From positions 678,684 to 742,683 of the forward strand of contig ML213515.1 in assembly GCA_004369045.1 (NCBI GenBank): a stretch of DNA of 64,000 nucleotides. Direction: 5' to 3'. The notes under the pieces were generated by a model, which was not told the DNA's origin, searched no databases, and worked only from the letters and a program-made list of their open reading frames with translations. Source of the stretch: Heliocybe sulcata (taxonomy: Eukaryota; Basidiomycota; Agaricomycetes; Gloeophyllales; Gloeophyllaceae). Below are positions 2,767 to 54,980 of this stretch, in pieces. Made by a program: the position numbers and the translations under genes. Position 1 is the stretch's first letter. Each line of letters opens with the position of its first letter.

Positions 2767-4347
2767 TCAGTCCTCCTCTCCCTCTTGCTCCTCGTCCTCA
2801 TGTGCATGGATTACCCTCTCAATGGACGAATCATCGTCTTCTGCCTCTGGGCTACCACCATGCTCGTACCCCAGTGAACGATCCCAATCGACTGGGATCT
2901 TCTTCCTCAACGCCATGACGTCCTCGCTAAGGACGTTTATTGCATCTCGGATTGTAAGATTGTTTTGTTTGTCCTCCTGCCGGAGGTACTGAACCGTCTT
3001 GCTTAGGAGCTCTATGAAGTCATCTTCGTTGCTGGCAAGGAAAGTCGGCCGAAACCTGACATGGTTCAGTTGAATCTTCTTCACGCGAGAACACACCAGC
3101 TCCCAGCCCCCGACAACAATGGGCCTGTGTCCATTTCGCCTGGTTGTGTCCTCCCTGAATCGGAGTACACGGATAAGACGCGACGGGAACGGCCCTATCA
3201 GGTGTCGGCTAGGCAGTAAGCCGGGTTCATTATACTCGTCCATGTCCTCAATGTCGAGCTCGGTCACTTGCGCGAAGGAGGTGCGCAGTGTCTCTGCCAA
3301 GGCATCGTATACTTGGCCCTCCTCCTCATCCCGATACGTCGACATGATGATATCAAGCCGCGGCTCCGCTGGTGCTTCACCCGCCCCGGTTTCTCCAGGC
3401 GCCGGAGAAAAGCTCAGCTTGGTGTAGGAAGTATTGATATGCTCGAGCCTGCATTTGCGGTATTGGCTGCTGGCGACGATCTTGTTGACCTTCGGGGCAA
3501 GAATTCTCGCGATATCCCTGACGCTGCTGAGGTCCTCGTGCTCGATCTCGATAATTGTGGTTGCCTCCGTCGGGAAATCGAGGCGGGCAAGGACGTTTGC
3601 AGATGCCGTGCTCCTGATGGCCATATCGAGTGTCTGCAGATGCGGCAGCGCAACATCATGCATGGTATTGTCATCCTTGACAGTCGCGCAAAGCGCGAGG
3701 TGCTTGAGATCCGGCACCATCAGCAACGTTGCGGAGACATCGTTCGCAGGCATCTTGAGATTGCCGCGGATCTCGAGTCGCTCCAGGCTACGACTGTGGG
3801 AGACGACAGTCTCGATAGTGCTCGGATAGAGGAATGTGACACGCAAGTCCTTCAGTGCCGGAGCAGTGATGGGTAGTACGGCGCTGGGCGGCACCGGTAA
3901 TCCGACCTCGTATGTACTGAGCTCCAGCTTTTGAAGCTTGGGAAAGTTCCATGCCTGACCATTGCAGAACTCGACCCACATCGCACTTCGGATCGTGATG
4001 TCGAGCGAGAGGATCTTGTAGGAGAAGCTGCGGAGGACCGTGAAGAGCTTCTCGGCCTTGCCTGGGTTCATGCAGCGGAGGCGGACCTTCGGATTCGCAG
4101 CTCTGGTGAGGAAGAGGGCGGTCAGGTCGGGGTGGAAGGCGACGACGTCGTCCCACAGATGCTTGTTCCTCTCCAATACCCTGTGGAACGTCTGAGAGAC
4201 GAGCCTTTTCTTCACCCAGGAGACTGTCGAGCATCCCGACTCGCCGGCGGCGGCAGCTTCCTTCTCCATGCCGACTGCGAGGGTCAGGATGTTATCGAGC
4301 GTCTCGGTTGGGATGCGATATATTGGGGCAGAATTGATGAAAGCCAT
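2767..4347 (-). CDS. F-box protein, family B (copy B1)
   Basis: Single-exon coding region of 526 aa. The start is placed at ATGGCTTTCATC (4347), because the upstream in-frame codons lie inside a likely 5'UTR intron (4353-4474) whose acceptor CCTCAG ends 5 bases before the ATG, as in the other family-B genes. Residues about 8-55 form a divergent F-box (IYRIPTETLDNILTLAV...VSWVKKRLVSQTFHRVL...LWDDVVAFHP). The middle is a leucine-rich solenoid-like region, and the C-terminus is acidic (PEAEDDDSSIERV...EDEEQEGEED). Role inferred: SCF substrate receptor of unknown target. Very close to the 40270-41841 gene. A GST relic lies directly upstream on the same strand. Confidence 0.85.
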   Translation of the reverse strand: MAFINSAPIYRIPTETLDNILTLAVGMEKEAAAAGESGCSTVSWVKKRLVSQTFHRVLERNKHLWDDVVAFHPDLTALFLTRAANPKVRLRCMNPGKAEKLFTVLRSFSYKILSLDITIRSAMWVEFCNGQAWNFPKLQKLELSTYEVGLPVPPSAVLPITAPALKDLRVTFLYPSTIETVVSHSRSLERLEIRGNLKMPANDVSATLLMVPDLKHLALCATVKDDNTMHDVALPHLQTLDMAIRSTASANVLARLDFPTEATTIIEIEHEDLSSVRDIARILAPKVNKIVASSQYRKCRLEHINTSYTKLSFSPAPGETGAGEAPAEPRLDIIMSTYRDEEEGQVYDALAETLRTSFAQVTELDIEDMDEYNEPGLLPSRHLIGPFPSRLIRVLRFREDTTRRNGHRPIVVGGWELVCSRVKKIQLNHVRFRPTFLASNEDDFIELLSKTVQYLRQEDKQNNLTIRDAINVLSEDVMALRKKIPVDWDRSLGYEHGGSPEAEDDDSSIERVIHAHEDEEQEGEED

Positions 4348-4352
4348 GTTTC

Positions 4353-4474: not shown

Positions 4475-5074
4475 CTCAGTGATTGATGGACTAAATGTGG
4501 TCGTAGAATTGAGTGTGGGGCTTGTAATGGAGAATTGCCGTGGCAGATAGAGCGCTTTGGACGATCTAGTGGTATGGATCGTGTGGCACTCAACACCAAC
4601 GACGGAGCAGAAAGGTGCGACAGACGTACGGTATAAGCTTTGAAGTAAAGTCGAGCTTACAATCGGTTGTGTAAACCGTCTAGTGGCCTGTGCGAGCAGA
4701 TGCGAAGTTGTGCGTCTGGATGGAGTTCCTGAGCTGGAAGGAAGGAAGTGCGCACTCGCGCCCCTTGAAGAATGCGTGACCTATTTGGCTCTCGGCTGTG
4801 GCATGATTCCCACGCTCTTTCCTTTCCGATAGCGGGTCATGGTGTCTCGCAGAAGTGCTGCCTCAGCGTGGTCCTGAAAGTGTCAAAAGAGTACAGCAAG
4901 GCCCGCTAGACCCGTGATAGATTCTAGGTTGCAATAAAAACGACCTTAACGAAGGACAAGTCGCATGAAACCCACCGGATTTACTAGCTGCTACCTGTTT
5001 ACGGAAAATATTTGTACTGCACACGCACCAGGCAGGATGTACGCAAATGTACTGCTTATGCATTCGAGAGAGTC
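4475..5074. other. Promoter region of B1 and spacer to the GST relic
   Basis: No gene. The segment aligns along its length with 41968-42560 (shared TATTTGGCTCTCGGCTGTGGCA and CTGAAAGT-TCAAAA-AGTA runs), so it belongs to the duplicated block. Confidence 0.5.
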
Positions 5075-5390
5075 GCAAAAGCTTTATACCGCTTTCGCAA
5101 ATCAGACCCTCTCGACGCAGCTTTCACAAAGTCTTCGCGCCGCGCCCAGGCTCCATCTACGAGCGGCTGCTCCAGCGTTCTCGCGTACTTACTGCGCTTC
5201 TTAACCATGTCAGAGTCCCCTCAGCCAACACGCCATGGACCTTGATGCATCAGCGTCTGCCTCTGGATCATTTTATGAGTTCGAATTCCAACGACCACCC
5301 GGATGGACTGGAAGTATACAAGAAGACTGCTTGTGCAGTATCACCTATATATGCCGGCCTGAGGGGGCGGAGTACCCGGTTGGCATAGAC
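5075..5390 (-). pseudogene. GST relic (last exon region)
   Basis: The plus strand at 5080-5260 aligns with the last exon of the intact GST at 42573-42797: GCAAAGCTTT, the TTCACGAA-TTC/TTCACAAAGTC run, CGGCTGCTCCAGC, CCATGTCAAAGTC/CCATGTCAGAGTC and the AACACGCC motif. Frame is lost and upstream exons are absent. The stretch at about 5290-5470 is repeated at 7655-7830, so the relic was duplicated again together with the neighbouring F-box 3' region. Confidence 0.6.
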
Positions 5391-5740: not shown

Positions 5741-7078
5741 CTAATGTAGGATTGACTTGAGAATATCGCCATCCTTGGGCCCAGTCCATTTCATAAAATG
5801 TCCACCGCTTTCAATGGTTGGGATGACCACGATGTTGAATCGACCAAGATAAACCTTGCCTTCCTCCTCAGGCCTGGTTCCGCGCATGCGTGACCGCAGC
5901 ATTCTCTCGAGCGGGGCCTTGTGATGCTCACGCACCCAATCAATTTCAATGTCTGTAAGCTTCGGCAAGAGAGCCTGGTGCGAGTCGCTTTCCGAAACGT
6001 ACGTGAGATAGTCGCAGATGTCTGAGAAACCGGTCTCCTTTCCGCAGAAATCATCCTGAACGCCATCAATGTGGAGCCTTTCGAGACGGGGCATGGCAAG
6101 CAATAGCTCGCGGAACTGCTCTACGTCTCTAGCGAACGACGTCCAGAGTTCTGTCCTCAGCTCCCTCAGACGACAGTCCGAGTGCACGAGGAAACGCGTG
6201 AGGGCGGCTGCCGACGGTAAGTAGAAGGGATAGCCGATATCGATGTTGACAGGAACCAGACGTAGCTCCTGCAGGGATGGAACTAGGAAGAGGGCTAAGA
6301 AATCCTCCAAGTTCCGACCGTTTCGCTCAGGTAGTGCGCGAATTTCCAGAGCCCGCACAAGTGGCAGTTCGCTCGCAGGTCCCTCGTCGAGCGTAGCTTC
6401 TGCAATTGTCACCCGGCACTTGGTCAAGGAAGTATACTGCGGTAATATATGTACAATTTCTCGCATGCAGGAGTAATCGCACCACTGCAGTTCCCGGAGC
6501 TGAGAACGCGGGAAGCGTATAGACTCGATTGTCCATTCAATGTTGCCGCTGAGAGTTAGGTTCTGCAGGGACGGCGCATGCAATGGACAATCAAGGGGGT
6601 TGTATTCTTGCACGCGTCCCAGCTCGAGGGACTCTAGCATGGGACAGTGGAGACCTGAAAGCAGCGGAGACAGCCAGCCGTATTCTGCCTCAAGAGAGAG
6701 GAGGCGGCACTGCGATATAAAAGAGCGGAGAACAGGAACATAATTGTCCAGCTCGCTCGTCCGCGAGGCGTCGATGCCAAGCGACAAGGCGAGTGGCTGC
6801 GCGCCTGCGCGAGAAAACCATGATTGGAGTTTCTCGAACGCGCGTTGTGCTCGAGAGTTGGAGGGGTCGGAGGAGTCGCATTCGGGTACGCGTATCTGGA
6901 GTGAACACCAAAGCTCCGTGGTACTGATAGCGCACTCCCTCCAGGACGCACACACCTGAGTTAGGAGAAGCGGGGCGTGACGAGGATCTGGTGTGATGAA
7001 GTTCGATTCTGTGTCCAATGACTGGAAGAAGATCTTGGACACCAACTCTGTGGGAATGGCTTGCGTGAAGGACCGCAT
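5741..7078 (-). CDS. F-box/LRR-like protein, family A (copy A2)
   Basis: Single exon, 445 aa from ATG 7078 (MRSFTQAIPTELVSKIFFQSL). An in-frame ATG 33 bases upstream (7111) is rejected: it lies inside a likely 5'UTR intron, 7184-7101 (ATC|GTAAGT...TTCGTAG|TGATAC), also present in the 16355-17719 paralogue. F-box at residues about 8-55 (IPTELVSKIF...HAPLLLTQVCASWRECAISTTELWCSL). The rest is repeated leucine-rich segments (LESLELG, LQNLTLSGNIEWTIESIRF, LQELRLVP, LERLHIDG) and a C-terminal MKWTGPKDGDILKSI motif shared by all intact copies. Probable SCF substrate receptor, target unknown. The stretch 6730-6976 is almost identical to the broken neighbour at 9044-9290. Confidence 0.85.
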   Translation of the reverse strand: MRSFTQAIPTELVSKIFFQSLDTESNFITPDPRHAPLLLTQVCASWRECAISTTELWCSLQIRVPECDSSDPSNSRAQRAFEKLQSWFSRAGAQPLALSLGIDASRTSELDNYVPVLRSFISQCRLLSLEAEYGWLSPLLSGLHCPMLESLELGRVQEYNPLDCPLHAPSLQNLTLSGNIEWTIESIRFPRSQLRELQWCDYSCMREIVHILPQYTSLTKCRVTIAEATLDEGPASELPLVRALEIRALPERNGRNLEDFLALFLVPSLQELRLVPVNIDIGYPFYLPSAAALTRFLVHSDCRLRELRTELWTSFARDVEQFRELLLAMPRLERLHIDGVQDDFCGKETGFSDICDYLTYVSESDSHQALLPKLTDIEIDWVREHHKAPLERMLRSRMRGTRPEEEGKVYLGRFNIVVIPTIESGGHFMKWTGPKDGDILKSILH

Positions 7079-7441
7079 AGTGTGCGTCGATCGAGTATCA
7101 CTACGAACCATTGCAGCAGTTAGCGCCTTACGGTGTTATGCTCACTGCTGAGAGTAAGTTAAGCACAGTAAACCGTCGACTTACGATATGGGGAGGCCGT
7201 GCAGAATTCAGGTGGAGGTGTCGAGTTTGTTCAAGTTGAAGTCCCTGCGTCCTCCCAGGAGGCCTTATACCCGTGGGAATCCAGGACATTGACTGTGGCT
7301 CCAGAGTCCAGCTTGTCCTTTTACCTCGTTCTCTCACCTTGCTGTGTAATCCATCAAAAGGTGATTGTAATAATTGCGCCCGACAGCTGCGTGCGGCCTG
7401 CGGTATAGAACAATAGGTGACTTGTAGCCTAATTCCTCTTT
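7079..7441 (-). promoter_or_regulatory. Promoter and 5'UTR intron of A2, shared with the 16355-17719 gene
   Basis: The block 7185-7290 (GATATGGGGAGGCCGTGCAG, then GGTGGAGGTGTCGAG, then AGGCCTTATAcCCGTGGGAATCC) recurs as the reverse complement at 16150-16255 upstream of the A6 gene. Conserved upstream DNA, a TATA-like TATAAGGCCT and the 5'UTR intron show that promoter and gene were duplicated together. Confidence 0.6.
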
Positions 7442-7553
7442 GCTAGAGACGTAGAGCAGTTCCGCAAGCTGCTGCTTGCTATGCCCCATCTCGAAAGGCT
7501 GCACATTGATGGCGTCCACGATGATTCATATGGAAAGGAGACCGGGTTCTCAG
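7442..7553 (+). pseudogene. Inverted internal fragment of a family-A F-box gene
   Basis: The plus-strand frame reads ARDVEQFRKLLLAMPHLERL and continues HIDGVHDDSYGKETGFSV, collinear with an internal segment of A2, A6 and A7. It is opposite in orientation to both neighbouring F-box copies and stops abruptly at about 7553, where GST-derived sequence begins. Only about 37 codons remain, so it is a rearrangement scar. Confidence 0.75.
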
Positions 7554-7740
7554 TTAGCCATGTCGAGGTCTCCTGAGCCAACACGCCCTGCCTCATGTTG
7601 CATGAGCATCTACCTTGGGAGCATTGCTTGGGTTCCAATCCCAAAGACCACCCGGATGGAACGGAAGTATACAAGAAGAATGCTGCGAAATATCAGCTAT
7701 GTTGGCTTGAGAGGGTGGAGGAACCAGTTGGCATAGAATG
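7554..7740 (-). pseudogene. Second GST relic fragment
   Basis: TTAGCCATGTCGAGGTCTCC, AACACGCC, CTACCTTGGGAGCATTGC and TGGGTTCCAATCC align with the junction of the last exon and last intron of the intact GST (42730-42815). The following stretch (CCACCCGGATGGAACGGAAG, then TACAAGAAGA) equals 5295-5330. Together with the next F-box copy it repeats the layout of 5075-7078. Confidence 0.6.
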
Positions 7741-8071
7741 ACGAGGAGTGAATAGCAAGTAACGTTCGCGGACGTGTGAATTAAGCCGGGACAATAATCG
7801 AATTTATGGTCACTAGACTGTGTCTGCACACTAAAAAGAAGGAATTACTACTGTCGATTGTCGAAAGTGCCAGCGAATATTGAGCTATGATATATGAGTG
7901 GTTGAATCCTCGCCGATGCGCGCGCTATACTACCCCGTGAGAAGAGACCTCGGCTTCCGCGAACGCGTAAAAACTGAAACACGCACGTGAAACAATGTGG
8001 CAGGCATAGGTCACGTTTCCGAAAGGTAATGAACGCAGATACGCTGAGGTATTTGTGTCGTCCAAATATGT
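7741..8071. other. Duplicated 3' flank of F-box copies A2 and A3
   Basis: Aligns with 5385-5740: GACGAGGAGTGAATAGCAA, GACTGTGTCTGCACA, then TGAACGCAGAT and TCGTCCAAATA close to the F-box stop. No gene. It shows that the GST relic, spacer and F-box gene were copied as one tandem unit of about 2 kb. Confidence 0.65.
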
Positions 8072-9384
8072 TCAATGTAGGAGCGACTTGATGATCTCGC
8101 CATCCTTGGGCCCAGTCCATTCCATACGGCGTCCAGCGCCTCCAGTAATGTGGAAGACCACGATGCGGAATCGACCAAGATAAACCTTCCCGTCCTCCGC
8201 AGCTCCAGTTGCGCGCATGCGAGACCGCAACATTCTCTTGATCGATGTCTCGTGATTGTCTTGCACCCGGCCAATTTCAAGGTCTGGAAGCTGCGGCAAG
8301 AGATCCTGGCGCGAATGGCCTGTCGAAGCATAGGTAAGATAGTCGCAGATGTCTGAGAACCCGGTCTTCTTTCCACAGAAATCATCGCTGACGCCATCAA
8401 TGTGGAGCCTTTCGAGATGAGGCATAGCGAGCAGCAGCTCGCGGAGCTGCTCTACGTCTCTAGCGAAGGACATCCAAAGTTCTGTCCTCAGCTCCGTCAG
8501 GCGACAGTCCGAGTGCACAAGGAAACGCGTGAGGGCGGCTGCCGACGGTAAGTAGAAGGGATAGCTGCCACTGCTGTAGATAGGAACCAGACGTAGCTCC
8601 TGCAAGGATGGAACTAGGAAGAGGGCTAAGAAATCCTCCAAATTACGACCATCTCGCTCATGTAGTGCGCGGATTTCCAGAGCTCGCAGGTACCTTTTCG
8701 AGCGTAACTTGTTCTGGAATTGACACGCAGCACTTGGTCAAGGAAGTATACTGCGGTAATATATGTAGGATTGTTCGCTCGATGGAGTAATCGCACCACT
8801 GCAACTCCCGGAGCTGGAAACGCCGGAAGCATATAGAGTCGATTGTCCAGTCGATGTTGCCGGTGAGAGATAGTGTCTGCAGAGATGGCACGTGCAATGG
8901 ACGATCAAGGGGTTTATATTGTTGCGCGTGTACCAGTTCTAGGGACTCTAGCATGGGACAGTGGAGACCTGAAAGCAGCGGAGACAGCCAGCCGTATCTT
9001 GCATCGAGAGAGAAGATGCGACACCGCGATATAAAAGAGCGGCGAACAGGAACATAATTGTCCAGCTCGCTCGTCCGCGAGGCGTCGATGCCAAGCGACA
9101 AGGCGAGTGGCTGCGCGCCTGCGCGAGAAAACCATGATTGGAGTTTCTCGAACGCGCGTTGTGCTCGAGAGTTGGAGGGGTCGGAGGAGTCGCATTCGGG
9201 TACGCGTATCTGGAGTGAACACCAAAGCTCCGTAGTACTGATAGCGCACTCCCTCCAGGACGCACACACCTGAGTTAGGAGAAGCGGGGCATGGCGAGGA
9301 TCTGGTGTGATGAAGTCGGACTTTGCATCCAGGCAGTGAGTGGACGAAGATCTTGGACACCAGCTCCGTTGGAATGGTTTGCAT
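8072..9384 (-). pseudogene. Family-A F-box gene broken by two frameshifts (copy A3)
   Basis: The start at 9384 (MQTIPTELVSKIFVHS) is followed by a 4-bp duplication: TTCGTCCAC[TCAC]TGCCTGG near 9340, compared with TTCGTCCACTGCCTGG in the 19525 gene. The family frame then continues (DFITPDPRHAPLLLTQVCAS onward) to about 8690. There 20 bases are missing between two copies of CTGCGAGC, which throws the frame off. The remainder (8072-8641) is intact, including the MEWTGPKDGEI C-terminal motif. Apart from these lesions it closely resembles A2 and A7, so inactivation looks recent. Confidence 0.9.
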
Positions 9385-10115
9385 GGTATCAACGACCACG
9401 TAGTATTCGACAATTGGATATCGCTGAGAAACGTTCCGGTAGTTGATGGTTTATACTGCGAGTGGTGGAAAATGTGTGCACCTCACAGGCTAGTTGACAA
9501 TAAGCCCTAAGCTAGTCGCCGAATCACTCTGAATCGTACCTGCTGGACCCGTGCAACCAGGCTACGTTGAGTGTCAAACAGAGCAGTAGTACCTCAGCAG
9601 TGGATACTGTGGCTATTCGTCAGGAATAAACGGATTTCACTTGGAGAACTAGGAGTGCAGAGAACCTAAGCGCTGAGTATTTGAGGCAGCAGTGGCATCG
9701 GACAATGCCGTCCGGCTGCTCTGCTAACGCGGGCCTATGGAGCACAAAGGTACCGTTTCAGCAGTACTAGACTTATGTTGACCCAAAGCCACTGTTCTCT
9801 CAGTATACTCTACACTTCAAAGCAATGCGTCTCAATGTTAAACAGAATCACAAGGACCCTTTAATGTAAGTCTAGCCCGAGAACTTCGGACTCGAGCAGG
9901 AAACCTCTGCTGTTTACATCCGTTGAAGCACGATGCCTAGTGAAAAGAGGAATTACTATTATCATGTATCGCGAGCACCAGCCTGCGAAGTATGTACCGT
10001 CATAACCATGGTTGAAGCCGCGTGCGAACTGAAAGACCCCCGTGAAAGAAACCCGCCAGCTTGGGATCTCCAATGGACGCAGACGCGGTGAAAGGTGTTA
10101 CGGCCGACCAAATCT
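9385..10115. other. Promoter remnant of A3 and spacer
   Basis: Bases 9400-9560 are the reverse complement of the region upstream of the intact 19525 gene (TACTACGTGGTCGTT, GATTCGGCGAC, GGTACGA-TCAG). A copy of the about 40-bp dispersed element lies at 9676-9715. Bases 9940-10110 match the 3' flank of A6 (17830-17930: TGAAGCCGCG, TATGACGG, CATACTTCG). No gene seen. Confidence 0.55.
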
Positions 10116-10606
10116 CTAATCCGGGATGACCTTGACGATATCGCCATGCTTGAGCCCAGTCCATTCCATAACGCGTCCAGCGCTCTTGGCGAGTGGGATG
10201 AGCATTATGCTGAATCGACCAAGATAAACCCTTCCGTCCTGCGCAGATGCGGTGCAGCGCATCCTCGACCGCAACATTGTGACGATCACCCACCTTGCCA
10301 ATTTTGTAGTCTGTAAGCTACGGCGAGAAAGCCTGGTACGATTCGCCTGTCGGAGCATAGGTAAGATAGTCGCATGTGTCTGAGAAACCGGTTTCCTTTC
10401 CGCAGAAATCATCGTGGAGGCCATCAATGTGGAGCCTTTCGAGATCGGACATAGACAGTAAGAGCTCGCGGAGCTGCTCTACGTCTCTAGCGAAGGACGA
10501 TATGAGCTCTATCCTCAGCTCCCTCGGGCAGCAGTCGGAGCGTGCGAGTAGACGCGTGAGGGAGGATGCAGACGATAAGCCAGGGAGAAGGGCGAAATCC
10601 CTGCGA
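10116..10606 (-). pseudogene. C-terminal fragment of a family-A F-box gene (copy A4)
   Basis: From the right: LTRLLARSDCCPRELRIEL, ARDVEQLRELLLSMSDLERL, ETGFSDTCDYLTYAPTGESY. Then CAG has become TAG (LPQL to SP-stop-L) near 10320, and about 17 bases are missing before the final frame RSRMRCTASAQDGRVYLGRF. At about 10606 the F-box sequence joins SDR/epimerase sequence. N-terminal half absent. Confidence 0.85.
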
Positions 10607-10925
10607 GTGTTGCCAGGTCCAACCATCTCACACTCCTATACCATCTAACTGCCAGCACGCAGCATATCTGCATCGAACGAGGGTTGCTGATGTCCTTGTC
10701 GAACAGTGCGCCGGAGGCAAGTCCAAATGTCGTAGGAGGAAAGATGATGTGAGCTCGGACATAATCTAAAGAGTAGAATGAGTAACTTGGCGTCATGACC
10801 GATGTCAATTTACTTGCCTTCCTCCCGGGCTGCCGCTATGGCTTCGTCGACCCAGTAACGGGCTGGCTTGGAGTCCCGAGGCACCGCAAGCAAGTGTTCG
10901 ACTATATTTCCGCACCGCATACCCC
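10607..10925 (-). pseudogene. SDR/epimerase fragment between F-box fragments
   Basis: Minus-strand YVRAHIIFPPTTFGLASGAL and FDKDISNPRSMQI correspond to YVRTHIILPSTIFGMASGPL and FDKGISNPHSIEI in the intact SDR (36954-38441), including an intron at about 10746-10812 and the preceding exon (YWVDEAIAAAREEG against RWVDEVIAAAGDEG). It stops inside the MVGPGK motif where F-box sequence starts. It is a partial paralogue of a gene now 27 kb away. Confidence 0.85.
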
Positions 10926-11290
10926 CACATGCGACTAGGCTGCTTTAGGCGGGATTCCGAGCGCGAAAATGATGCCATGACAGTAGGTGCAGTTACCCTG
11001 CCCAGGTCCAAGCTAGCATCTGGACGGGTATCCAGGCGTAGCTCTTGCACGCCAGGAGCCGAAAGGCAGCCACAAGACCTCCATTATTTTCTAGATCATA
11101 GGCAGAATGGACTCCAGGCACTCCCGACACGGTAGCACGATTCTGGCTACCGTCGTGGGCGTGACGTGTGGAGTAGCTGGCAGAACACCGTCAAGTGAGT
11201 GTACTGCGGTAGAACACATAGAATCACTTGACCGCTGCATTCACCGACCCGCTTGAGTTCCCTGAGCTAAGGCAGTAAACGTACTGCGGT
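10926..11290 (-). pseudogene. Middle fragment of another family-A F-box gene (copy A5)
   Basis: MQELRLDTRPDASLDLG, with a following segment ending SESRLKQPSR, matches LQELRLVPVNIDIGYPF...HSDCRLRE. Further right, GTGTACTGCGGTAGAACACA and the CTTGAGTTCCC-GAGCT run match the LPQYTSLTK and PRSQLREL segments. Because it overlaps the part also present in A4, A4 and A5 derive from different copies, with the SDR fragment between them. Confidence 0.65.
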
Positions 11291-12241
11291 GTCGGACCAC
11301 TCTGTGTCGGCGCGCAACAGTCCAGACGAGAGCGAGCCGCAATCAGCGTCGTGCCAGCCGCTCAAGAGGGGATGACTTACTGTACAACCTACCCCGCAAC
11401 GCAGCGTCCGCATATCTAAACAAGCCGCGAACAGGATGGAGGAAGTTGAGTCTGACATGGTGATGGATCAGTGCCGCAGACTCATAGAGCAGTATCTGCG
11501 AGTGTCAAGACCCAGGTGTCACATCGTCTATATTAGTCGGTGTCGAAGAAAGCAAGGAGGCTGCAACGGAGGTGCATACAATCAGCACCGACGTCAAGAT
11601 CCTGCAGGAGGGAATACGCGATCAGCATATAGTGGCGAACGAGATGCCACCGACAGCGGACACCGAACATTCAAGATCGGCCACCTAGCAACGCCACAAT
11701 AGAAGGGAGTCCGGTTATCACATAAATCGCGAGTACAACCTTGAAGTCTAAAAGGGCGACGGATCACGGATCAATGTGGCAGTTCGTCCTCATGTTGAAG
11801 CCTAAGAATATGACACGGATTGTGAGCGATCCTGAACGACTGTACATGTGATGGGGAGGACGACGCTCACTGCAATTCCAGGGGGGCAAGGACAGCCGGC
11901 AACAGTGTTATAACGGCGAGGAAATTTGCCGATCAGGAGTATGAGCGTTCCAGACGATGAGAGGGAACCTTGTGGATTAGGCGCGCCCACAATGTAGTAC
12001 AAAAGATAATGTACAAACAACCGATCTAGTCATGACGAAGGAAGAAATACATAAAGTAGGCACTGAGGGCGGGAGAATAGAGTGGAAGGGCTTAGAGTCG
12101 ACTCGGGGTATACATCGATGACATGACGCAGTAATAATATAACAGTCATTATAGATGTCCTGCTGTACACCCCAGTAAGCACGACATACCCTCGTCGCAC
12201 AGATATAGTCACTCGTACCTAGTATACCAGTCCATCGCAGC
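11291..12241. other. Intergenic with one coding-like run
   Basis: No gene assigned. The plus strand at about 11490-11690 has an open run containing GVEESKEAATEVHTISTDVK followed by ILQEGIRDQ, whose composition looks like a real helical protein segment, but it has stops at both ends and no clear splice context. It could be a relic of a larger gene. The rest shows nothing recognisable. Confidence 0.3.
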
Positions 12242-12868: not shown

Positions 12869-13314
12869 CGACGATCTGCGTTCAGCCATCACCGCCATCA
12901 TCGAAAACGATGGTCTGCTCACCAGTAGCGGTCTTGGCCATTGCGAGCGACGGCTGCGGGGATGGGGAGGTAGTGGTGCAAAGGAAAGGGCAAGTGGGAA
13001 GGAAAATGGCTAGTGGGGATTAAATAAGAGACTAGGCAGCGGGGCTCCAAAACCAAGAGTCAACGGACACCAAACAGACGCAACAGCGCGTCGAGGCGGT
13101 CACGTGCATATGGTCCGTGCGTCGTCACGGGCGCGCCAAAAATAGGGCGCTTCGCTGATGCGCAGGCTATTTCTGGGGGACGGCAGTTTCCAGGGTCCGG
13201 TGGGTATATGAACGCTGGCGGTGCGACGACAACGCCATCTCCTCCTTTTCCTGCATCCCCCGCCTCGCGCGCACAACCAGTTTTATTTCTTCACTACTCT
13301 TATTAGTCGTCTAA
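12869..13314. other. Divergent promoter region, HMG-box gene and glycoprotein gene
   Basis: The two genes are transcribed away from each other across 446 bp. GC-rich, with GGGCGCGCC (13129), TCACGTGC (13101) and a TATATGAAC stretch about 110 bp before the 13315 start. No other gene. Confidence 0.45.
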
Positions 13315-40269: not shown

Positions 40270-41841
40270 TTAGTCCTCCTGTTCCTCCTCGTCCTCTGAA
40301 TCGATTACCCTCTCGATGGGCGAATCGTCGTCTTCCGCCTCTGGGCTACCACCATGCTCGTATCCCAGTGAGCAATCCCAATCGACTGGGATCTTCTTGC
40401 TCAAAGCCCTGATGTCCTTGGGGAGGATATTTACGGCGCCTCGGATTGTAAGGTTGTTTGGTTGATTCTCCTGCCGGAGGTTCTGAACAGTCTTGCTTAG
40501 GAGCTCAACGAAGTCGTTTTCGTTTCCGGCAAGGAAAGTCGGCCGAAATCTGACATGGCTGAGTCGAAGCTTCTTCAGGTGAGAACATACCAGTTCCCAG
40601 CCACCGACAACAATAGGCCTGCGTCCATTTCGCCTGTTTGTGTCCTCCCTAAATCGGAGAACACGGATCAGACGTGACGGGAATGGCCCTATCAGGTGTC
40701 GGCTAGGCAGTAAGCCGGGTTCATTATACTCGTCCATGTCCTCAATGTCGAGCTCGGTCACTTGCGCGAGGGAGGTGCGCAGTGCCTCTGCCAAGGCGTC
40801 GTATACGTGGCCCTCCTCCTCATCGTGATACGCCGACACAATGATATCAAGTCGCGGCTCCGCTGGTGCTTCACCCCTCGCGGTTGCTCCAGGCGCCGGA
40901 GAAAAGCTCAGCTTGGTGTAGGAAGTATTGATATGCTCGAGCCTGCATTTGCGGTATTGGCTGCTGGCGACGATCTTGTTGACCTTCGGGGCAAGAATTC
41001 TCGCGATATCCCTGACGCTGCTGAGGTCATCGTGCTCGATCTCGATAACAGTGGTCGCCTCCGTCGGAAAGTCGAGGCGGGCAAGGACGTTTGCAGAAGC
41101 CGTGCTCCTGATGGCCATATCGAGTGTCTGCAGATGCGGCAGCGCAACATCATGCATGGTATTGTCATCCTTGACAGTCGCGCAAAGCGCGAGGTGCTTG
41201 AGATCCGGCACCATCAGCAACGTTGCGGAGACATCGTTCGCAGGCATCTTGAGATTGCCGCGGATCTCGAGTCGCTCCAGGCTTTGACTATGGGAGACGA
41301 TAGTCTCGATAGTGCTCGGGTAGAGGAATGTGGCACGCAAGTCCTTCAATGCCGGAGCAGTGATGGGTAGTACGGCGCTGGGCGGCACCGGTAATCCGAC
41401 CTCGTATGTGGTGAGGTCCAGCCTTTGAAGCTTGGGAAAGTTCCATGCCTGACCATTGCAGAACTCGACCCACATCGCACTTCGGATCGTGATGTCGAGC
41501 GAGATGATTTTGTAGGAGAAGCTGCGCAGGACGGTGAAGAGCTTTTCGGCCTTGTCTGAGTTTGTGCAACGGAGGCGGACCTTCGGATTCGCAGCTCTGG
41601 TGAGGAAGAGGGCCGTCAGGTCGGGGTGGAAGGCGACGACGTTGTCCCACAGATGCTGGTTCCTTTCCAAGACCCTGCGGAACTTCTGAGAGACGAGCCT
41701 TTTCTTCACCCAGGAGACTGTGGAGAACCCGTTCTCGCCGGTGGCGGCAGCTTCCTTCTCCATGCCGACTGCGAGGGTCAGGATTTTATCAAGTGTCTCG
41801 GTTGGGATGCGATATATTGGGGCAGGGTTGATGAAAGCCAT
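40270..41841 (-). CDS. F-box protein, family B (copy B2)
   Basis: Single-exon coding region, 523 aa, from MAFINPAPIYRIPTETLDKI. F-box at about 8-55 with VSWVKKRLVSQKFRRVLERN. The leucine-rich middle includes LEIRGNLKMPANDVSATLLM and SVRDIARILAPKVNKIVASS, identical to B1 over long stretches. The acidic tail ends DSEDEEEQED, shorter than in B1. Start chosen 5 bases after the 5'UTR intron acceptor GCTCAG. The intact GST at 42573-43645 is directly upstream on the same strand. Probable SCF adaptor; substrate unknown. The small number of differences from B1 points to a recent block duplication. Confidence 0.88.
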   Translation of the reverse strand: MAFINPAPIYRIPTETLDKILTLAVGMEKEAAATGENGFSTVSWVKKRLVSQKFRRVLERNQHLWDNVVAFHPDLTALFLTRAANPKVRLRCTNSDKAEKLFTVLRSFSYKIISLDITIRSAMWVEFCNGQAWNFPKLQRLDLTTYEVGLPVPPSAVLPITAPALKDLRATFLYPSTIETIVSHSQSLERLEIRGNLKMPANDVSATLLMVPDLKHLALCATVKDDNTMHDVALPHLQTLDMAIRSTASANVLARLDFPTEATTVIEIEHDDLSSVRDIARILAPKVNKIVASSQYRKCRLEHINTSYTKLSFSPAPGATARGEAPAEPRLDIIVSAYHDEEEGHVYDALAEALRTSLAQVTELDIEDMDEYNEPGLLPSRHLIGPFPSRLIRVLRFREDTNRRNGRRPIVVGGWELVCSHLKKLRLSHVRFRPTFLAGNENDFVELLSKTVQNLRQENQPNNLTIRGAVNILPKDIRALSKKIPVDWDCSLGYEHGGSPEAEDDDSPIERVIDSEDEEEQED

Positions 41842-46106: not shown

Positions 46107-47194
46107 ATGTCTCACGGAAAGCAATTCACCCTCTACAGCCACAAGGCAGGTGTTAAAGATATTGATTCCCTGTTTCGAATCTTGGTCTAACATACCTTTA
46201 GTTTGGCCCCAACGGATGGAAGGTTGCGTTTCTCTTCGAAGAGCTTGGATTAACGTATGAGACGGTATGGCTGGAGTTCGATAAGAAACAGCAGAAGCAG
46301 TCGCCGCATATCGACCTCAACCCTAATGGACGCATCCCTAGTATTGTCGACCATCAGTAAGCTGCTGGGCTCAACCTCACGTTGCCGCTGCTTCTAACGT
46401 TCCAATCTGTGTCATATCAACAATGACTTTGTGCTGTGGGAGTCGAACACTATCCTTCTTTATTTAGTGGACAAGTACGACAAAGAGGGGAAGTTCAAAT
46501 TGAGCAATCCGAACGACAAGGTATACTTGTCGTTCTCCTCCAAAATTTCTGTCACCTGATGTCCATGCAGTACCGCGAATTACAGTGGCTGTTCTTCCAA
46601 GCATCCGGGCAAGGTCCCTACTACGGTCAGGTGCATTCTCTCATTGTTACGAAACAAGGACGAGAGGTAATAACGCCTGATTAGGCGACGCACTTCCTCT
46701 TCAACCACCCCGTCAGGTAAGACATCCTACGCGACACCGCTTCAGAATAGTCTGGATGACACGGTCCGTTTAGGGTTCCCACCGCTGCGAAGCACTATCT
46801 GGATGAAGTCAAGCGGGTTGTCAGCGTCCTGGAATCTGTGCTGAGCAAGCAAGAATGGCTTGTTGGAGGGAAGTTCGGGCTCGCTGACCTTGTAAGTTCT
46901 TTCTACCCTTCAGTGGTGTCGCAATAGAAATCTGATCTCTATCTTCGGAAGGCATTCTTTCCGTGGCATGACAACGCTGTGCGTTTGATGTTTGCGCCAG
47001 GCACAGATGGCCTCGCTAAGGATGCTCCCCACGTCCACGCGTGGTATGAGCGGCTGAAGGAGCGGCCTTCCATCAAGAAATGCTGGGCTGAACGTGAGGA
47101 AGGCGTCAGGGCGTCAGGCATAATGGAGAAGGTTCCCACTGCTCTCCAGAGTATTGAGGATGCCTCAAAGCCGTGGCCACCTGTTCTGTTCTAA
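46107..47194 (+). CDS. Ure2p-like glutathione S-transferase (GST2), probably splice-dead
   Basis: Exons equivalent to GST1: 46107-46145, 46202-46356, 46421-46520, 46571-46630, 46685-46716, 46774-46891, 46952-47194, which would give 248 aa. Segments: MSHGKQFTLYSHK, FGPNGWKVAFLFEELGLTYE, NPNGRIPSIVDHH, DFVLWESNTILLYLVDKYDK, REL-QWLFFQASGQGPYYGQ, FFPWHDNAVRLMFAPGTDGL. Intron 1 again starts with GC (AAG|GCAGGT). Intron 2 has a good donor (CATCA|GTAAGC) and a CTAAC branch site but no AG before the exon: the expected position reads ATATCAA|CAATGAC. The next AG breaks the frame, and retention gives HQ-stop. Otherwise intact, so loss is recent, or rare splicing is used. Confidence 0.8.
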
Positions 47195-48188: not shown

Positions 48189-49802
48189 ATGGCTTTCGCT
48201 CCCATTTCCATGAACACAATGCCCGTGGAGATTGTGGAGAAGATCTTTGTTGACGCAACCAATATCAGAAGGCAGCAAGATCGGATGAGGGTACTCTTGA
48301 TGATGACGCATATTTCCAGGAAGGTGCGAGAGATCGTGACAAGAAAGAGGGAACTGTGGAACTTCATCAACACTGACAAACCCGCCCTCGCTGCTATGTT
48401 CCTGGAGCGCTCAGCGCAGCCGGATGTCAGTCTCGCCTTGACTGAGCCTGGCGACGAGCAGAGGGCGTCCGAGTTCTTCGATGTCCTGGAGCTCTACTCG
48501 GAGAAGATTGTCTCCTTGCACATAGATATCCCCGGCGCTCTTTGGGAGAGATTCTGTACGGAGAGGGCGCCCGAGATGTGGCAGATGACGAACTTGCTGC
48601 GCGCTCAGTTCTGGCACCAGGTTGGCAACGACAGATATACCATACCTTCTACCGTCGTCCTTCCCTTCGTAACCCCGGCTTTGAAGGAGCTGATGACCTT
48701 CAGGATTCCCCTCCGAGCGATGCAGCCGCTATTGTCAGCTACTATCGAGGATCTCAAGGTCTCGGACAATACTAAACCGGCAACCGAAGATGTCTGGACC
48801 GCGTTGTCTGCGACGCCAAACGTGAGACACCTGAGTTTCGGCGCGACCGTGGTAGATGACGCGAAAAAACGCGACGTCGACGTTCCTCAGCTGGAGAAGC
48901 TCAGCCTCCGTCTCGTGAACAGGCCCGCGGCCGAGGTGTTCACCCACCTTATACATCCCGGAAAGGCGCGTATCAATCTAGACATCATCAGCGACGACCT
49001 GGATGAGACCCGAGACATTATCAACACCATCGGTCCAAAGATAAATGCAATTGCTATCGAAAACGACTATACCATGTGCGTGCTGTACCACTACAGCACC
49101 ACTAACACAACTGTGGTGCTGTCGCCGCCTTCCACACGCGACGCGTTGACGGAGGAGGAAGACGGTGAAACGGGACCAAGATTGGAGTTGGTAATACAAC
49201 AGTATATCGAGGAGGAAGAGGCCCTCCTATACGATGCCTTAGCAGAGGCGCTCGGTCCAACACTGGATCAGATTAGGGTCCTCAAGATCCACGAAATGCG
49301 GTTGTACAACGATCCGAGCCTCGAGCCCACGCATGACCTCATAGGCCCGTTTCCGACACGTCTCATTCGTAGGAAGAAGCAAATCTGGTCTATGCCAGAG
49401 GAAATCTGGGTGCTTGCCTGCCCATGTGTACAGAATATGGCGTTGCGCTACGTGCGGTTCCGCAAGACGTTCCGCGAGCATAACAAGGACGATTTCGTGG
49501 ACCTCCTGTCGAGGTCCATTAAGCACTCCCAGTTAGGAGAATACAAAATGAATCTCACAATCGACTACCCGGTGAATTTGAAGGAAACGGAGGTCGCGGA
49601 TCTGGAGAAGACAATTGGTACCATTCACCGGATTGGTCCGATCGGGAAGGAGGACGGTGGAAACACGGAGGATGACACGGTTGAGATCTTTGGAGAGAGG
49701 GAGATTGGTTGGCTGGAGGAAGACGACGAGTCAGAAGAAGAAGCTGGAGATACCGACGAGGACGACAGCGAGGAGGAGGATGGTGTCGAAGATTCTCTAT
49801 AA
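48189..49802 (+). CDS. F-box protein, family B (copy B3)
   Basis: Single-exon coding region, 537 aa, from MAFAPISMNTMPVEIVEKIF just after the intron acceptor TTGCAG. F-box at about residues 8-55 (MTHISRKVREIVTRKRELWN). The leucine-rich middle keeps the family landmarks PALKELMTF, VWTALSATPNVRHLSFGATV, HDLIGPFPTRLIRRKKQIW, YVRFRKTFREHNKDDFVDLL, and the C-terminal INLTIDYPVNL-type strand (MNLTIDYPVNLKETEV). It ends in a strongly acidic tail (ESEEEAGDTDEDDSEEEDGV). More diverged from B1/B2 than they are from each other, closer to B4. GST2 lies directly upstream on the same strand. Confidence 0.87.
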   Translation: MAFAPISMNTMPVEIVEKIFVDATNIRRQQDRMRVLLMMTHISRKVREIVTRKRELWNFINTDKPALAAMFLERSAQPDVSLALTEPGDEQRASEFFDVLELYSEKIVSLHIDIPGALWERFCTERAPEMWQMTNLLRAQFWHQVGNDRYTIPSTVVLPFVTPALKELMTFRIPLRAMQPLLSATIEDLKVSDNTKPATEDVWTALSATPNVRHLSFGATVVDDAKKRDVDVPQLEKLSLRLVNRPAAEVFTHLIHPGKARINLDIISDDLDETRDIINTIGPKINAIAIENDYTMCVLYHYSTTNTTVVLSPPSTRDALTEEEDGETGPRLELVIQQYIEEEEALLYDALAEALGPTLDQIRVLKIHEMRLYNDPSLEPTHDLIGPFPTRLIRRKKQIWSMPEEIWVLACPCVQNMALRYVRFRKTFREHNKDDFVDLLSRSIKHSQLGEYKMNLTIDYPVNLKETEVADLEKTIGTIHRIGPIGKEDGGNTEDDTVEIFGEREIGWLEEDDESEEEAGDTDEDDSEEEDGVEDSL

Positions 49803-51339: not shown

Positions 51340-52300
51340 TGAGTTATTCCTATATTGGCTCCAACGGCTGGAAAGTTGCGTTTCTTCTGGAAGAACTGGA
51401 GCTAACCTACGAGACGGTGAGGCTTTAGTTCAACAAGAACGAGCAGAAACAATCGTCCCATATGGATTTAAACCCTCATGGCCGCATCCCAACTCTTATC
51501 GATCACCAGTAAGTCATCGTTGCTAACTGTTGCACTGGTATTGAGTCGAATTCTGTCGAATCGCAATGGCGACCTTGTCATTTGGGAGTCGAATGTCATT
51601 CTCCTATACCTTGCGGATGACTACGACAAAGAAGGGAAGTTTAGACTGAACGACCCCAAGGACAAGGTATGACAAACGTTCTTGTCTTGGAATTATCCTG
51701 ACGTCCGGAGTTGCTGTAGTACCGGTGGCTGATGTTTCAAGCTTCGTGCCAGGTCCCTACTTTGGACAGGTGCATCCCGTGCTGCTGCGGAGGCTGAAAT
51801 TGAGGGGAACACTGGCCACTTCCTAGGCGACGCACTTTCTCTACTATCACATCGTCAAGTAGGACGTTCGTATGCACAATGTTTCACAGCGGCTCTGATA
51901 AGTGCACTGTTTAGGGTTCCCACTGCTGTCGAGCGCTATCAGGATGAAACGAAGCGGGTCATCAGCGTTCTCGGGTCGGTACTGAGCAAGCAGAAATGGC
52001 TAGTCGGGGATAGATTTGGTCTCGCTGACATTGTAAGTTGCTATACAACCTTGACGTTGGCATATTCACGTCTGATCTGGATCATGTAAGGCGCTGCTCC
52101 CATGGCATGATGTTGCATGGCATTTTGCGTTTACTCCAGGGACATATGACATTGCCATAGACGCTCCTTGCGTTCAGGCATGGCACGAGCGGTTGAAGGA
52201 GCGACCTTCCATCGCGAGATGTTGGGCTCCACGTGAAGAAGGCGTCACAGAGTCCGGAATAATTATAGGGTCTCTCTTGCTTTTAAGAGCATCGAAGAGG
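51340..52300 (+). pseudogene. Decayed Ure2p-like GST (GST3)
   Basis: Collinear with GST2 but exon 1 is missing and the acceptor before GSNGWKVAFLLEELELTYET is not AG. The next codons read VRL-stop-FNKNEQK where GST2 has VWLEFDKKQQK. Exon 3 is recognisable (DLVIWESNVILLYLADDYDK). Exon 4 has a 9-base deletion and a one-base shift (MFQASCQVPTLD). Later exons read VLSKQKWLVGDRFGLADI and RLKERPSIARCWAPREEGVT. Clearly a pseudogene. It stands upstream of B4 in the same orientation, repeating the GST-F-box order. Confidence 0.88.
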
Positions 52301-53165
52301 TTTCGCAGCAGTGAGCACGTACTCCAAGATTATATTTATGCTCCATGTATCTCTGAGCGACTGTGCGTAGGGAGCAAGAGCCGCCCATTATTTATCTGTT
52401 AGAATTTTATCAGCAATGGCTTTACTCGCAGAGGATGGCTCACAGAAATATTGATAATACCATTTCACAACCGAAGATAGTGGATATGCTCGGAGCATGT
52501 GCAATTGAAGTTGGACCATTTGCACGACTGCCGTCTTGTAGAATAATAAGATTGAGCATCGTAGGCGGTATATTCACGTGTATTATCTCATGATGCAGTT
52601 AGTGAGCACAGTATCATGCACGATATTATACTGTCCGACATCATGGATGTCCTCGTTGTCTATAGCCATGCAGCCCTACATAGACGGTATCACGAGAGGA
52701 TTATTATCGGCTCAGGAAAGCCGTGGGAATATTCAGCCACAACCTCGTGAGCGCGCGTTCGTTGTTCCTCCGTGCCACAAGAGAAACATCACTCGAGACA
52801 TTTGCTCTTCCTCATACCCCGAGCTCTCAACGACTCACAGAATCCTCAACATTACTAGCACTTGTACTCTCACGCCGAAATAAACATTGTACGTTGCTGC
52901 CCTCCGTGGCTGTGGCACTACGAGTTTAATCTATCCCCTGCACCAGAAAACCCAACTCCATTCCCCAACCGAAGCGTCCGAAGCGTACCATAACTTATCA
53001 TTCACTCGAATACTAATCCTTCAAGTTCAATCGACACCGACAGAATCAGGTAAGGCATTCGCGTTCAATTTATACTCTGTTGGATCCGACCGTGCCACAC
53101 CTACCACACCTTACCATTCGTCCTTCCATCTCAATCTGACCCTACCCTTCTCTTCTCAGGACATC
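52301..53165. other. Spacer, B4 promoter and 5'UTR intron
   Basis: No gene. Candidate 5'UTR intron 53050-53159 (ATCAG|GTAAGGCATT ... CTTCTCAG|GACATCATGG, 110 nt) carries GTGCCAC at 53092-53098, 68-74 bp before the ATG. Further heptamers stand at 52772-52778 and 52912-52918. The donor GTAAGGCATT is identical to that of B5. Confidence 0.55.
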
Positions 53166-54980
53166 ATGGCGTTCGCACCTGCTCTCCTTCAAGCAATGCC
53201 ACCAGATGTCTTCGAGAACATTGTTGTTCGCGCCTCCGAAAAGAGGAGGCAGGACCATGGCATGAAAGGCCTTCTGGAGATGACCCACGTTAGTAGGAAG
53301 GTGCAAGGGATTGTGTTGAAGAAGAAGGAGCTTTGGAATCGGATAAGCATGGAGACTCCCGCTCTCGCTGCTTTGTTTCTGGAGCGCGCCGCAAGGCCGA
53401 AGGTGACCGTCTCCATCGCCAAGGCTAGCGATAAGAAGAGGGTCTCCGATAGATTCGACGTCCTCGAGCTGTACGCGGCGACGATCGTCTCTCTCCGCAT
53501 CAATATACCAGGCAAAGATTGGGAGGCGTTATGCACGGAGAGAAGGCCGGAGGCGTGGCAGATGGGGATGCTGGAGAGCGCGGAACTCCGGCACTATGAC
53601 GAGAACTACGAGCTTCCGCCCGCCGCCGTCGTTCCATTCCAGGCTCCCATCCTCAAGGATCTCCTCACCTTTGGACTGCCGTTGAAAGCTGTCCAGCCTA
53701 TCATATCCGGCACACTCCGCCGTCTGCAGATTCAGGGCAATGTTGAAGTCACAACCGAGGATATCTGGACCGCGTTGAAGGCGACGCCTAACCTCGAGAA
53801 TCTGTATTTATGCCACACCATTGAGGACGACGATACGAGGAAGAACGTCCATCTCCCTCTCTTGCGCAATTTGGTGTTGCCGATTAGGAACAACGTCGCC
53901 GCCGAGGTGTTCACGCACCTCGTTCTCCCCGCGGATGCCTCTTTGACGTTGGAGATTATCTGCGAAGGTTATAGCGCCGACAAGATTGGAGGAAATATCG
54001 GTACCCTCGCTCCCAGGATCAATAGGATCGCAAATGCGAACGACTATCGGTCCTGCGAGCTCGTGCACGACAGCACGGTCCGCACGAAGCTAGTCCTATC
54101 CCCGGTTGTTGCAGCCAAGTATGCACAGGCTGTACCGTCGGACCAAACACAGGTAATCGCGCCGACGCTGGAGTTAATTCTGGACGAATATCCAGAGCAC
54201 GACGAGGGTCTTGTATACGACGCGCTGGCACAGGCATTGCTTCCTACACTGCAGCAGCTCTCCGTCCTCAAGATAGAGGACATGAGATCGTACAATAGCG
54301 AAGGACTACCACCTTCGCGCCATCTGATAGGTCCTTTCCCGACGCGCCTGCTGCGTACAACGAAGAGGGACTGGTCTTTGCCGACAGAGGCTTGGCACTC
54401 AGTGCTTGCGTGCTCTTGCTTGCGCAAGCTAGAGCTGCGGTATGTCCGTTTCCGGAAAACGTTCCTCAATGGCGACCCGGACGATTTTGTGGGCCTGCTG
54501 CTAAGATCCATTAGGCATTTCCAGTCGGAAAAGTCAATAAACCTTACTATCGACCACCCGGTCAACTTGGACGAGCAGGATATCGTGAAAATGGAGGAGG
54601 CAATAAGCCACATCCACTGGACTGGACCGCTGGGAGCCGAAAACGGCGGCCAGGAGGAAGAAGAGGATATCGAGGATGTCTTTAAGGAGGCATGTTCCGA
54701 GGCAGATGAAGAGGAGGACGCCCATGGGCTAGATGGAGAGGTTGCCGTGGGCGAAGCTGATGCGGATACGAACGCTGGTGGTAGCGCCGTCATCGTGAGC
54801 GGCAACCAAAGGAATGATAAGGCCGAGAACATCTTCGACGAGAGCACATCAGACGTGGAGGAAGAAGAGAGTCAGTGGCGAGACGTGAAGGATACCGAGG
54901 GCGAAGGCTCTATCGCTGCGTACATTAGCGGCGATGATGCCGCCATGGGCGACCGCGAGGAGAAGAGCGGCATGGTCTGA
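53166..54980 (+). CDS. F-box protein, family B (copy B4) with long acidic tail
   Basis: Single-exon coding region, 604 aa, from MAFAPALLQAMPPDVFENIV. F-box at about residues 8-58 (MTHVSRKVQGIVLKKKELWN). Leucine-rich middle with PILKDLLTFGLPLKAVQPII, NLENLYLCHTIEDDDTRKNV and SRHLIGPFPTRLLRTTKRDW; then YVRFRKTFLNGDPDDFVGLL and INLTIDHPVNL. From about residue 490 the tail is Glu/Asp/Ala/Gly-rich, much longer than in B1-B3. It stops at TGA 54978-54980, but the same frame stays open for 61 more codons of similar composition. GST3 lies upstream. Substrate unknown. Confidence 0.87.
   Translation: MAFAPALLQAMPPDVFENIVVRASEKRRQDHGMKGLLEMTHVSRKVQGIVLKKKELWNRISMETPALAALFLERAARPKVTVSIAKASDKKRVSDRFDVLELYAATIVSLRINIPGKDWEALCTERRPEAWQMGMLESAELRHYDENYELPPAAVVPFQAPILKDLLTFGLPLKAVQPIISGTLRRLQIQGNVEVTTEDIWTALKATPNLENLYLCHTIEDDDTRKNVHLPLLRNLVLPIRNNVAAEVFTHLVLPADASLTLEIICEGYSADKIGGNIGTLAPRINRIANANDYRSCELVHDSTVRTKLVLSPVVAAKYAQAVPSDQTQVIAPTLELILDEYPEHDEGLVYDALAQALLPTLQQLSVLKIEDMRSYNSEGLPPSRHLIGPFPTRLLRTTKRDWSLPTEAWHSVLACSCLRKLELRYVRFRKTFLNGDPDDFVGLLLRSIRHFQSEKSINLTIDHPVNLDEQDIVKMEEAISHIHWTGPLGAENGGQEEEEDIEDVFKEACSEADEEEDAHGLDGEVAVGEADADTNAGGSAVIVSGNQRNDKAENIFDESTSDVEEEESQWRDVKDTEGEGSIAAYISGDDAAMGDREEKSGMV

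What the first reader, a model, noticed from the sequence alone, without database searches (positions are those of the whole stretch)
2767..54980. Four copies of a GST followed by F-box module
Seen: four times a Ure2p-like GST (intact, splice-dead or relic) lies immediately upstream, on the same strand, of a family-B F-box gene: 5075-5390 then 4347-2767; 43645-42573 then 41841-40270; 46107-47194 then 48189-49802; 51340-52300 then 53166-54980. Established: GSTs and F-box genes are each known to expand in Agaricomycetes. Inference: the pair duplicated as a unit, so GST and SCF adaptor may be functionally or regulatorily linked. Against: the F-box copies stay open while three of four GSTs are damaged, so selection may act mainly on the F-box gene.
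Basis: partly seen in the sequence, partly recalled or inferred. Interest (0 to 1): 0.78.

Follow-up and report, generated by a model that had tools for sequence, protein, structure and literature searches.

The report
Co-duplicated GST and F-box gene pairs
In a wood-decay fungus, copies of a detoxification gene sit just upstream of copies of a likely protein-degradation adaptor gene because stretches of chromosome carrying both were copied together; most of the detoxification copies are broken, so this looks like shared inheritance rather than proof that the two genes work together.

Summary
All four GST-then-F-box pairs are present; GST1 (43645-42573) is intact and the other three GSTs are broken. 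The window matches Heliocybe sulcata (contig C13). A fifth pair, also with a dead GST, lies outside it at C13:830.9-827.6 kb. Co-duplication is supported: DNA upstream of the F-box genes aligns in P1/P2 and P3/P5, and synonymous divergence agrees between partners (P3/P5: GST 0.30, F-box 0.34; P3/P4: 1.42, 1.58). Linkage seems older than the genus: in Neolentinus lepideus the two closest relatives of the P3-type GST and the three family-B proteins found share one contig length (277,253 bp). But the pairs are not simple copies of one module: GST1 belongs to another GST lineage, and one clade of array GSTs is rejected (AU p=0.0006). Two of seven full-length family-B genes lack a GST, 0 of 17 GST places outside the array lie within 5 kb of a listed F-box, and one relic precedes a different F-box family. 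Best reading: segmental co-duplication of old neighbours with GST decay. Functional coupling is untested and unlikely.

The parts
2767..4347 (-). Family-B F-box/LRR-like gene of pair 1 (P1), open, 526 aa
   Evidence: 89% identical to the pair-2 protein
5059..5289 (-). GST relic of pair 1, last exon only, class I (49.7 bits to GST1, 25.4 or less to class II proteins)
7554..7811 (-). Second small GST relic, a 78-79% repeat of the pair-1 relic region, upstream of a family-A F-box-like gene (7111-5741)
40270..41841 (-). Family-B F-box/LRR-like gene of pair 2 (P2), open, 523 aa
42573..43645 (-). GST1, intact Ure2p-class glutathione transferase, seven exons, intron 1 of GC-AG type, 243 aa; class I
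46107..47194 (+). GST of pair 3, class II; exon frames open, acceptor AG of intron 2 missing; database protein P0033 lacks the stretch around that junction
48189..49802 (+). Family-B F-box/LRR-like gene of pair 3 (P3), open, 537 aa; predicted LRR-like solenoid behind a low-confidence helical N-terminus
51345..52264 (+). GST remnant of pair 4, class II, in-frame stop in exon 2, no first exon found
53166..54980 (+). Family-B F-box/LRR-like gene of pair 4 (P4), open, 604 aa
44200..45350 (-). TFIIF beta subunit gene between the divergent pairs 2 and 3 (extent read by eye; Pfam match on ORF 44636-45136)
59045..63283 (+). Two more distant relatives (B738, B740), part of the segment whose inverted copy at 819-831 kb carries pair 5

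Best explanation
Old neighbours, an Ure2p-class GST and an F-box/LRR-like gene, have been carried along through repeated segmental duplications (tandem and inverted) in a changing F-box array of about 200 kb. Inferred: an F-box gene with its own short promoter is the part that is kept, duplicated segments often happened to include the GST, and redundant GSTs then decayed. Inferred: GST1 still acts as a detoxifying Ure2p-class enzyme and the F-box-like proteins as SCF substrate adaptors, independently of each other.
For: dS agrees between partners: P3/P5 GST 0.297 (81 codons), F-box 0.340 (537 codons); P3/P4 GST 1.421, F-box 1.577. Flank homology: P1/P2 86% over 790 columns (about 480 bp of spacer plus 300 bp of coding DNA), then 70% in the GST; P3/P5 86% over 1200 columns (about 900 bp of spacer plus 300), then 79-90% in the GST. 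The P5 block is an inverted copy of the window segment with P3, B738 and B740. The split {P1,P2} against {P3,P4,P5, Neolentinus 277-kb contig} appears in both trees, modestly supported for the F-box. In Neolentinus lepideus 2 of the 4 GSTs among the listed hits (both of class II) and 3 of 3 family-B proteins found have longest contig 277253. Two of seven full-length family-B genes (812, 877) have no GST hit upstream, and their homology to paired genes fades beyond about -400. 0 of 17 GST places outside the array lie within 5 kb of a listed F-box. A GST relic also precedes a family-A gene after a 2.3-kb tandem duplication.
Against: Linkage in two genera, and doubled genes in Neolentinus too (GSTs 87%, F-box proteins 83% identical), leave room for selection on linkage. 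GST dN/dS of 0.13-0.18 shows long constraint beside the F-box genes. Class I and class II GSTs hold the same position relative to a family-B gene, which needs either one founding pair plus a GST copy that left the array, or two captures. The two GST-less genes 812 and 877 resemble each other upstream as far as about -800 (58-63%), although 877 groups with P3/P5 in the F-box tree (93/95); a history of simple inheritance of the pair does not explain this without exchange or parallel loss. dN/dS values are pairwise and crude, and part of them come from already broken genes.
Confidence: 0.8

Rival explanations
1. Functional module: the F-box protein is the SCF adaptor that controls the neighbouring GST or a shared detoxification response, so the pair is kept and copied together.
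For: Class II GSTs and family-B proteins share one contig length in Neolentinus lepideus; both genes are doubled there too; purifying selection on the GSTs.
Against: Four of five paired GSTs are broken while all five F-box partners are open; 2 of 7 full-length family-B genes lack a GST; no intact class II GST was found in this genome; listed GST/F-box adjacency is confined to one array.
Confidence: 0.08
2. Two separate captures: a class I GST and a class II GST each came to lie upstream of a family-B gene independently, and each pair then duplicated.
For: Array GSTs held as one clade are rejected (AU p=0.0006), and so are array GSTs plus P0011/P0012 without the C16 gene and P0009 (p=0.0057). 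The C16 relative of GST1 shows no family-B match in 3.5 kb downstream. Spacers of P2 and P3 do not align.
Against: Same order, strand and spacing in both groups, with about 2% chance per GST; class I plus class II as one clade is not rejected (p=0.25); both trees share the split between P1/P2 and the rest, though the F-box root rests on a long outgroup branch.
Confidence: 0.25
3. The adjacency is chance in a gene-dense F-box array.
For: The array is rich in F-box genes (13 F-box-like hits listed on C13), so an inserted gene will often have an F-box neighbour; the 7554-7811 relic precedes a family-A gene.
Against: All five larger GST copies in the array precede family-B genes on the same strand, and flank DNA aligns within sister pairs; partners have matched dS.
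Confidence: 0.04

Closest known systems
Ure2p-class (Ure2pA-like) fungal glutathione transferases, e.g. PcUre2p4, PcUre2p6 and PcUre2p5 of Phanerochaete chrysosporium
   Same: Best PDB sequence matches of GST1 (4zb6, 4zb7, 4f0c; E 6.4e-75 to 1.1e-71); GST_N and GST_C over cut-off. Tandem duplication is described for PcUre2p4/6 (PMC3815920, passages seen).
   Different: GST1 has a longer C-terminal tail (243 aa; the 4zb6 chain has 223) and lies in an F-box array. Placement in subclass Ure2pA rests on nearest matches, not on a full class tree.
F-box/LRR (FBXL-type) SCF substrate adaptors, e.g. FBXL2, FBXL17, SKP2, plant TIR1, COI1 and D3
   Same: The model of the P3 protein is mostly an LRR-like solenoid; F-box/LRR proteins are among the best Foldseek and VIA-align matches.
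   Different: The N-terminal helices are modelled with low confidence, and the Pfam F-box-like match is below cut-off in the best members (P0006 22.4 bits against 24.3). Foldseek TM-scores are low (0.2-0.3 for the query in the top rows), and LRR proteins without an F-box score about as well.
Segmental-duplication arrays of gene families with fast turnover
   Same: Tandem and inverted copies, broken genes, neighbours carried along.
   Different: Nothing distinctive beyond the identity of the two genes.

Membership tests
Ure2p-class GST | GST_N and GST_C domains in a protein of about 220-245 aa | tested here: met
   GST1: PF02798 60.4 bits and PF00043 47.7 bits, both over cut-off
Ure2p-class GST | Nearest solved proteins are of the Ure2p class | tested here: met
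   PcUre2p4, 6, 5 and 8 are the top four distinct sequences, yeast Ure2 next
Ure2p-class GST | Glutathione transferase or thiol-disulfide activity | not testable with these tools
   no assay
F-box/LRR SCF adaptor | N-terminal F-box domain | tested here: inconclusive
   PF12937 below cut-off in P0005 and P0006 (21.9 and 22.4 bits against 24.3), no F-box match in the window's four family-B proteins at E 0.1; two relatives carry an F-box-domain name in UniRef
F-box/LRR SCF adaptor | LRR solenoid behind the F-box | tested here: met
F-box/LRR SCF adaptor | SKP1 binding | not testable with these tools
   no assay
Co-duplicated gene unit | Partners of equal age and homology across the spacer | tested here: met
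   P3/P5: dS 0.297 and 0.340, flanks aligned. P1/P2: flanks aligned, GST too short for dS. P3/P4: dS agree, spacer no longer alignable
Co-duplicated gene unit | All copies descend from one pair (array GSTs form one clade) | tested here: not met
   AU p=0.0006; a single founder with a GST copy that later left the array stays possible (class I plus II as one clade, p=0.25)

The most novel reading that the evidence does not exclude
In Gloeophyllaceae an Ure2p-class GST and its neighbouring F-box/LRR protein form an inherited pair in which the SCF adaptor tunes the GST or a shared response to wood extractives. The linkage is kept and amplified independently in Heliocybe and Neolentinus, and Heliocybe is caught in the act of losing the GST half.
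Probability: 0.08. Interest if true: 0.6.

Novelty: new member of a known kind. Interest (0 to 1): 0.3.

Why it matters
It is a dated example of how co-duplication of neighbours can look like a functional module: five copies of one arrangement reduce to one or two founding events once trees, spacers and a second genus are examined. It also marks a GST lineage with no intact copy found in Heliocybe but two full-length members in Neolentinus, which could be tested against tolerance of wood extractives, and a fast-changing F-box/LRR-like family for which two searches, both limited in the candidates they scored, returned only these two genera.

Tried and rejected
Rejected: a simple single-clade origin of the array GSTs. 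A GC-AG first intron as a shared derived mark of the array GSTs: it is certain only for GST1, because database protein P0033 reads the pair-3 gene with another junction there. An F-box beside the C16 relative of GST1: the 3.5 kb downstream has an AAA-ATPase-like frame (named by eye, no family search) and no family-B match better than E 0.1. Chance adjacency.

Dropped from counts: the place at 757 kb, used at first as a family-B gene without GST, is a 5'-truncated fragment behind another F-box frame. B738, B740, their copies at 819-824 kb and the place C13:868816-870264 (27% identity; sequence not held) are more distant relatives and were not counted among the seven full-length family-B genes; none of the held ones has a GST hit upstream. 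The relic at 7554-7811 is too short to reach E 0.05 in the contig-wide search and is not among its six GST places.

Limits: the profile search with the family-B alignment returned five proteins because only the candidates sharing most words were scored; it missed P0005 and P0006 found before, so absence from Gloeophyllum or elsewhere is not shown. I found no collection at hand that holds Neolentinus DNA; contig identity is inferred from equal contig length, and distances there are unknown. Only 120 of 934 GST hits were listed. The F-box list is a lower bound (150 of 229 candidates scored) and lacks most family-B genes. dS between class I and class II GSTs is saturated. The F-box tree is rooted on a long branch (B740), and the program warned that B738 and B740 may join falsely. 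The rows for the GSTs of P4 and P5 come from broken genes, and P5 fills half of the columns. Nine paper searches listed no title or abstract start about GST/F-box adjacency in fungi; passages of three papers were seen, the rest as listings only, and most subscription papers are not held.
Full report
What is there. The window is C13:678684-742683 of a 31.6-Mb, 51-contig genome. Family-B proteins encoded there match Heliocybe sulcata records whose longest contig has the length of C13, 952,076 bp; Heliocybe belongs to Gloeophyllaceae. GST1 (43645-42573) splices to an intact 243-aa protein, present in databases as P0007. Pair 3 has seven open exon frames, but intron 2 has no AG before exon 3; database protein P0033 lacks the stretch around that junction. 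Pair 4 has an in-frame stop in exon 2, and no first exon was found. Pair 1 keeps only the last exon. The four F-box genes are open over 523-604 codons.

Beyond the window. A search of the genome with the pair-3 F-box protein gave 13 places, 10 of them on C13. A search with GST1 showed GST exons next to one of these, C13:829193-827580, on the same strand and upstream: a fifth pair, whose GST has lost a large internal part and has an in-frame stop. In the 252 kb of C13 held, six GST places reach E 0.05: one at 635 kb, away from the array, and five that each precede a family-B gene. Of seven full-length family-B genes (682, 720, 727, 731, 812, 829 and 877 kb) five have the GST and two do not: 812, with the upstream DNA held, and 877, with 4.4 kb of upstream DNA held. 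An eighth, at 757 kb, is 5'-truncated and cannot be scored; more distant relatives such as B738 were not counted. A further small relic at window 7554-7811, a 78-79% repeat of the pair-1 relic region, lies upstream of a family-A gene.

Did the pair duplicate as a unit? Yes, within two groups. For P3 and P5, homology covers about 900 bp of spacer plus the start of the gene at 86%, then parts of the GST at 79-90%, and synonymous divergence agrees: 0.297 for the GST over 81 codons, 0.340 for the F-box over 537 codons. For P3 and P4 it is 1.421 and 1.577, although the spacer no longer aligns. For P1 and P2 about 480 bp of spacer plus the gene start align at 86%, the GST end at 70%, and the relic is class I like GST1. 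The P5 block is an inverted copy of a larger segment that includes relatives of B738 and B740 and lacks pair 4.

Are all pairs copies of one pair? Not simply. A tree of 18 GST rows puts GST1 with the Heliocybe C16 GST and the Neolentinus protein P0009 (98/97), and the GSTs of P3, P4 and P5 with Neolentinus P0011 and P0012 (97/96). Holding the four array GSTs together is rejected (p=0.0006), and so is holding them with P0011/P0012 but without the C16 gene and P0009 (p=0.0057); class I plus class II as one clade is not rejected (p=0.25). The F-box tree has {P1,P2} on one side and {P3,P4,P5,812,877} plus three Neolentinus proteins on the other, with modest support (83/86) and a long outgroup branch. 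So either one founding pair existed and a class I GST copy later left the array, or two captures occurred. No family-B match lies in the 3.5 kb downstream of the C16 gene; an AAA-ATPase-like frame, named by eye, does. One result fits neither history neatly: the GST-less genes 812 and 877 resemble each other upstream to about -800, further than either resembles P3 or P5, although 877 groups with P3/P5 (93/95). Exchange or parallel loss must be assumed.

A second genus. Neolentinus lepideus has three family-B proteins among the hits (P0005, P0006, P0127) and four GSTs among the 120 of 934 hits listed. All three F-box proteins and the two class II GSTs carry the contig length 277,253 bp; the other two GSTs do not. 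Equal length is taken as the same contig; distances on it are unknown. P0011/P0012 are 87% identical and P0005/P0006 83%, which fits a separate doubling of both genes there. The linkage thus seems to predate the split of the genera.

Does co-duplication mean co-function? The evidence leans against it. Family-B genes without GST exist, and their upstream homology to the paired genes fades beyond about 400 bp, which suggests a self-contained F-box promoter. No intact class II GST was found in this genome, while the F-box genes of P3, P4 and P5 stay open. Of 17 GST places outside the array, none lies within 5 kb of a listed F-box; the nearest is 5.5 kb, and two are on contigs without any listed F-box. 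That F-box list is a lower bound and lacks most family-B genes, which were sought apart and lie on C13. On the other side, pairwise dN/dS is 0.13 and 0.18 for class II GSTs and 0.26-0.43 for the F-box genes, so the GSTs were well constrained for much of their history, and the P3 copy has a short branch (0.038), which fits recent loss.

What the two proteins are. GST1 matches PcUre2p4, PcUre2p6 and PcUre2p5 best among solved structures. This class is described as expanded in saprophytic fungi and as having tandem duplicates (passages of PMC3227518 and PMC3815920). The family-B protein of pair 3 gives a model with mean pLDDT 72 and pTM 0.72, largely an LRR-like solenoid whose matches include F-box/LRR proteins but also other LRR proteins, with low TM-scores. 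The F-box itself is weak: below cut-off in the best members and not detected in the window's four. F-box/LRR adaptor is the likely but unproven identity.

Verdict. The explanation with most support is passive co-duplication of old neighbours in an F-box array, followed by decay of redundant GSTs. A functional module is not excluded.

Noticed in passing
window 7554-7811: A second GST relic, repeated from the pair-1 relic region by a 2.3-kb tandem duplication together with a family-A F-box-like gene; it precedes a family-A gene.
   Followed up: partly
window 44200-45350 (-): TFIIF beta subunit gene between the divergent pairs 2 and 3; a useful synteny marker for other genomes.
   Followed up: partly
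window 46107-47194: Database protein P0033 for the pair-3 GST lacks a stretch of the GST N-terminal domain; probably a pseudogene annotated as a gene.
   Followed up: partly
L042 (C16:572000-573300): The C16 relative of GST1 carries a short direct repeat in exon 2 that shifts the frame in the assembly; database protein P0010 reads without it. Assembly error or recent lesion.
   Followed up: no
C13 809-814 kb (L012, L037) and 873-880.6 kb (L011, L045): The two family-B genes without GST resemble each other upstream to about -800 bp, further than either resembles P3 or P5, against the grouping of the F-box tree; unexplained.
   Followed up: partly
window 5741-20853: Family-A F-box-like genes in about five tandem and inverted copies, some partial, 74-92% alike in DNA; a further fragment lies at 39455-39701.
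   Followed up: no
C13 766-841 kb (L032-L040): Further F-box/LRR-like relatives of B740, intact and broken; the array continues well beyond the window.
   Followed up: partly
window 28960-30129 and 25236-26321: An indoleamine 2,3-dioxygenase gene and a Mis12-Mtw1 family gene within the array region.
   Followed up: no
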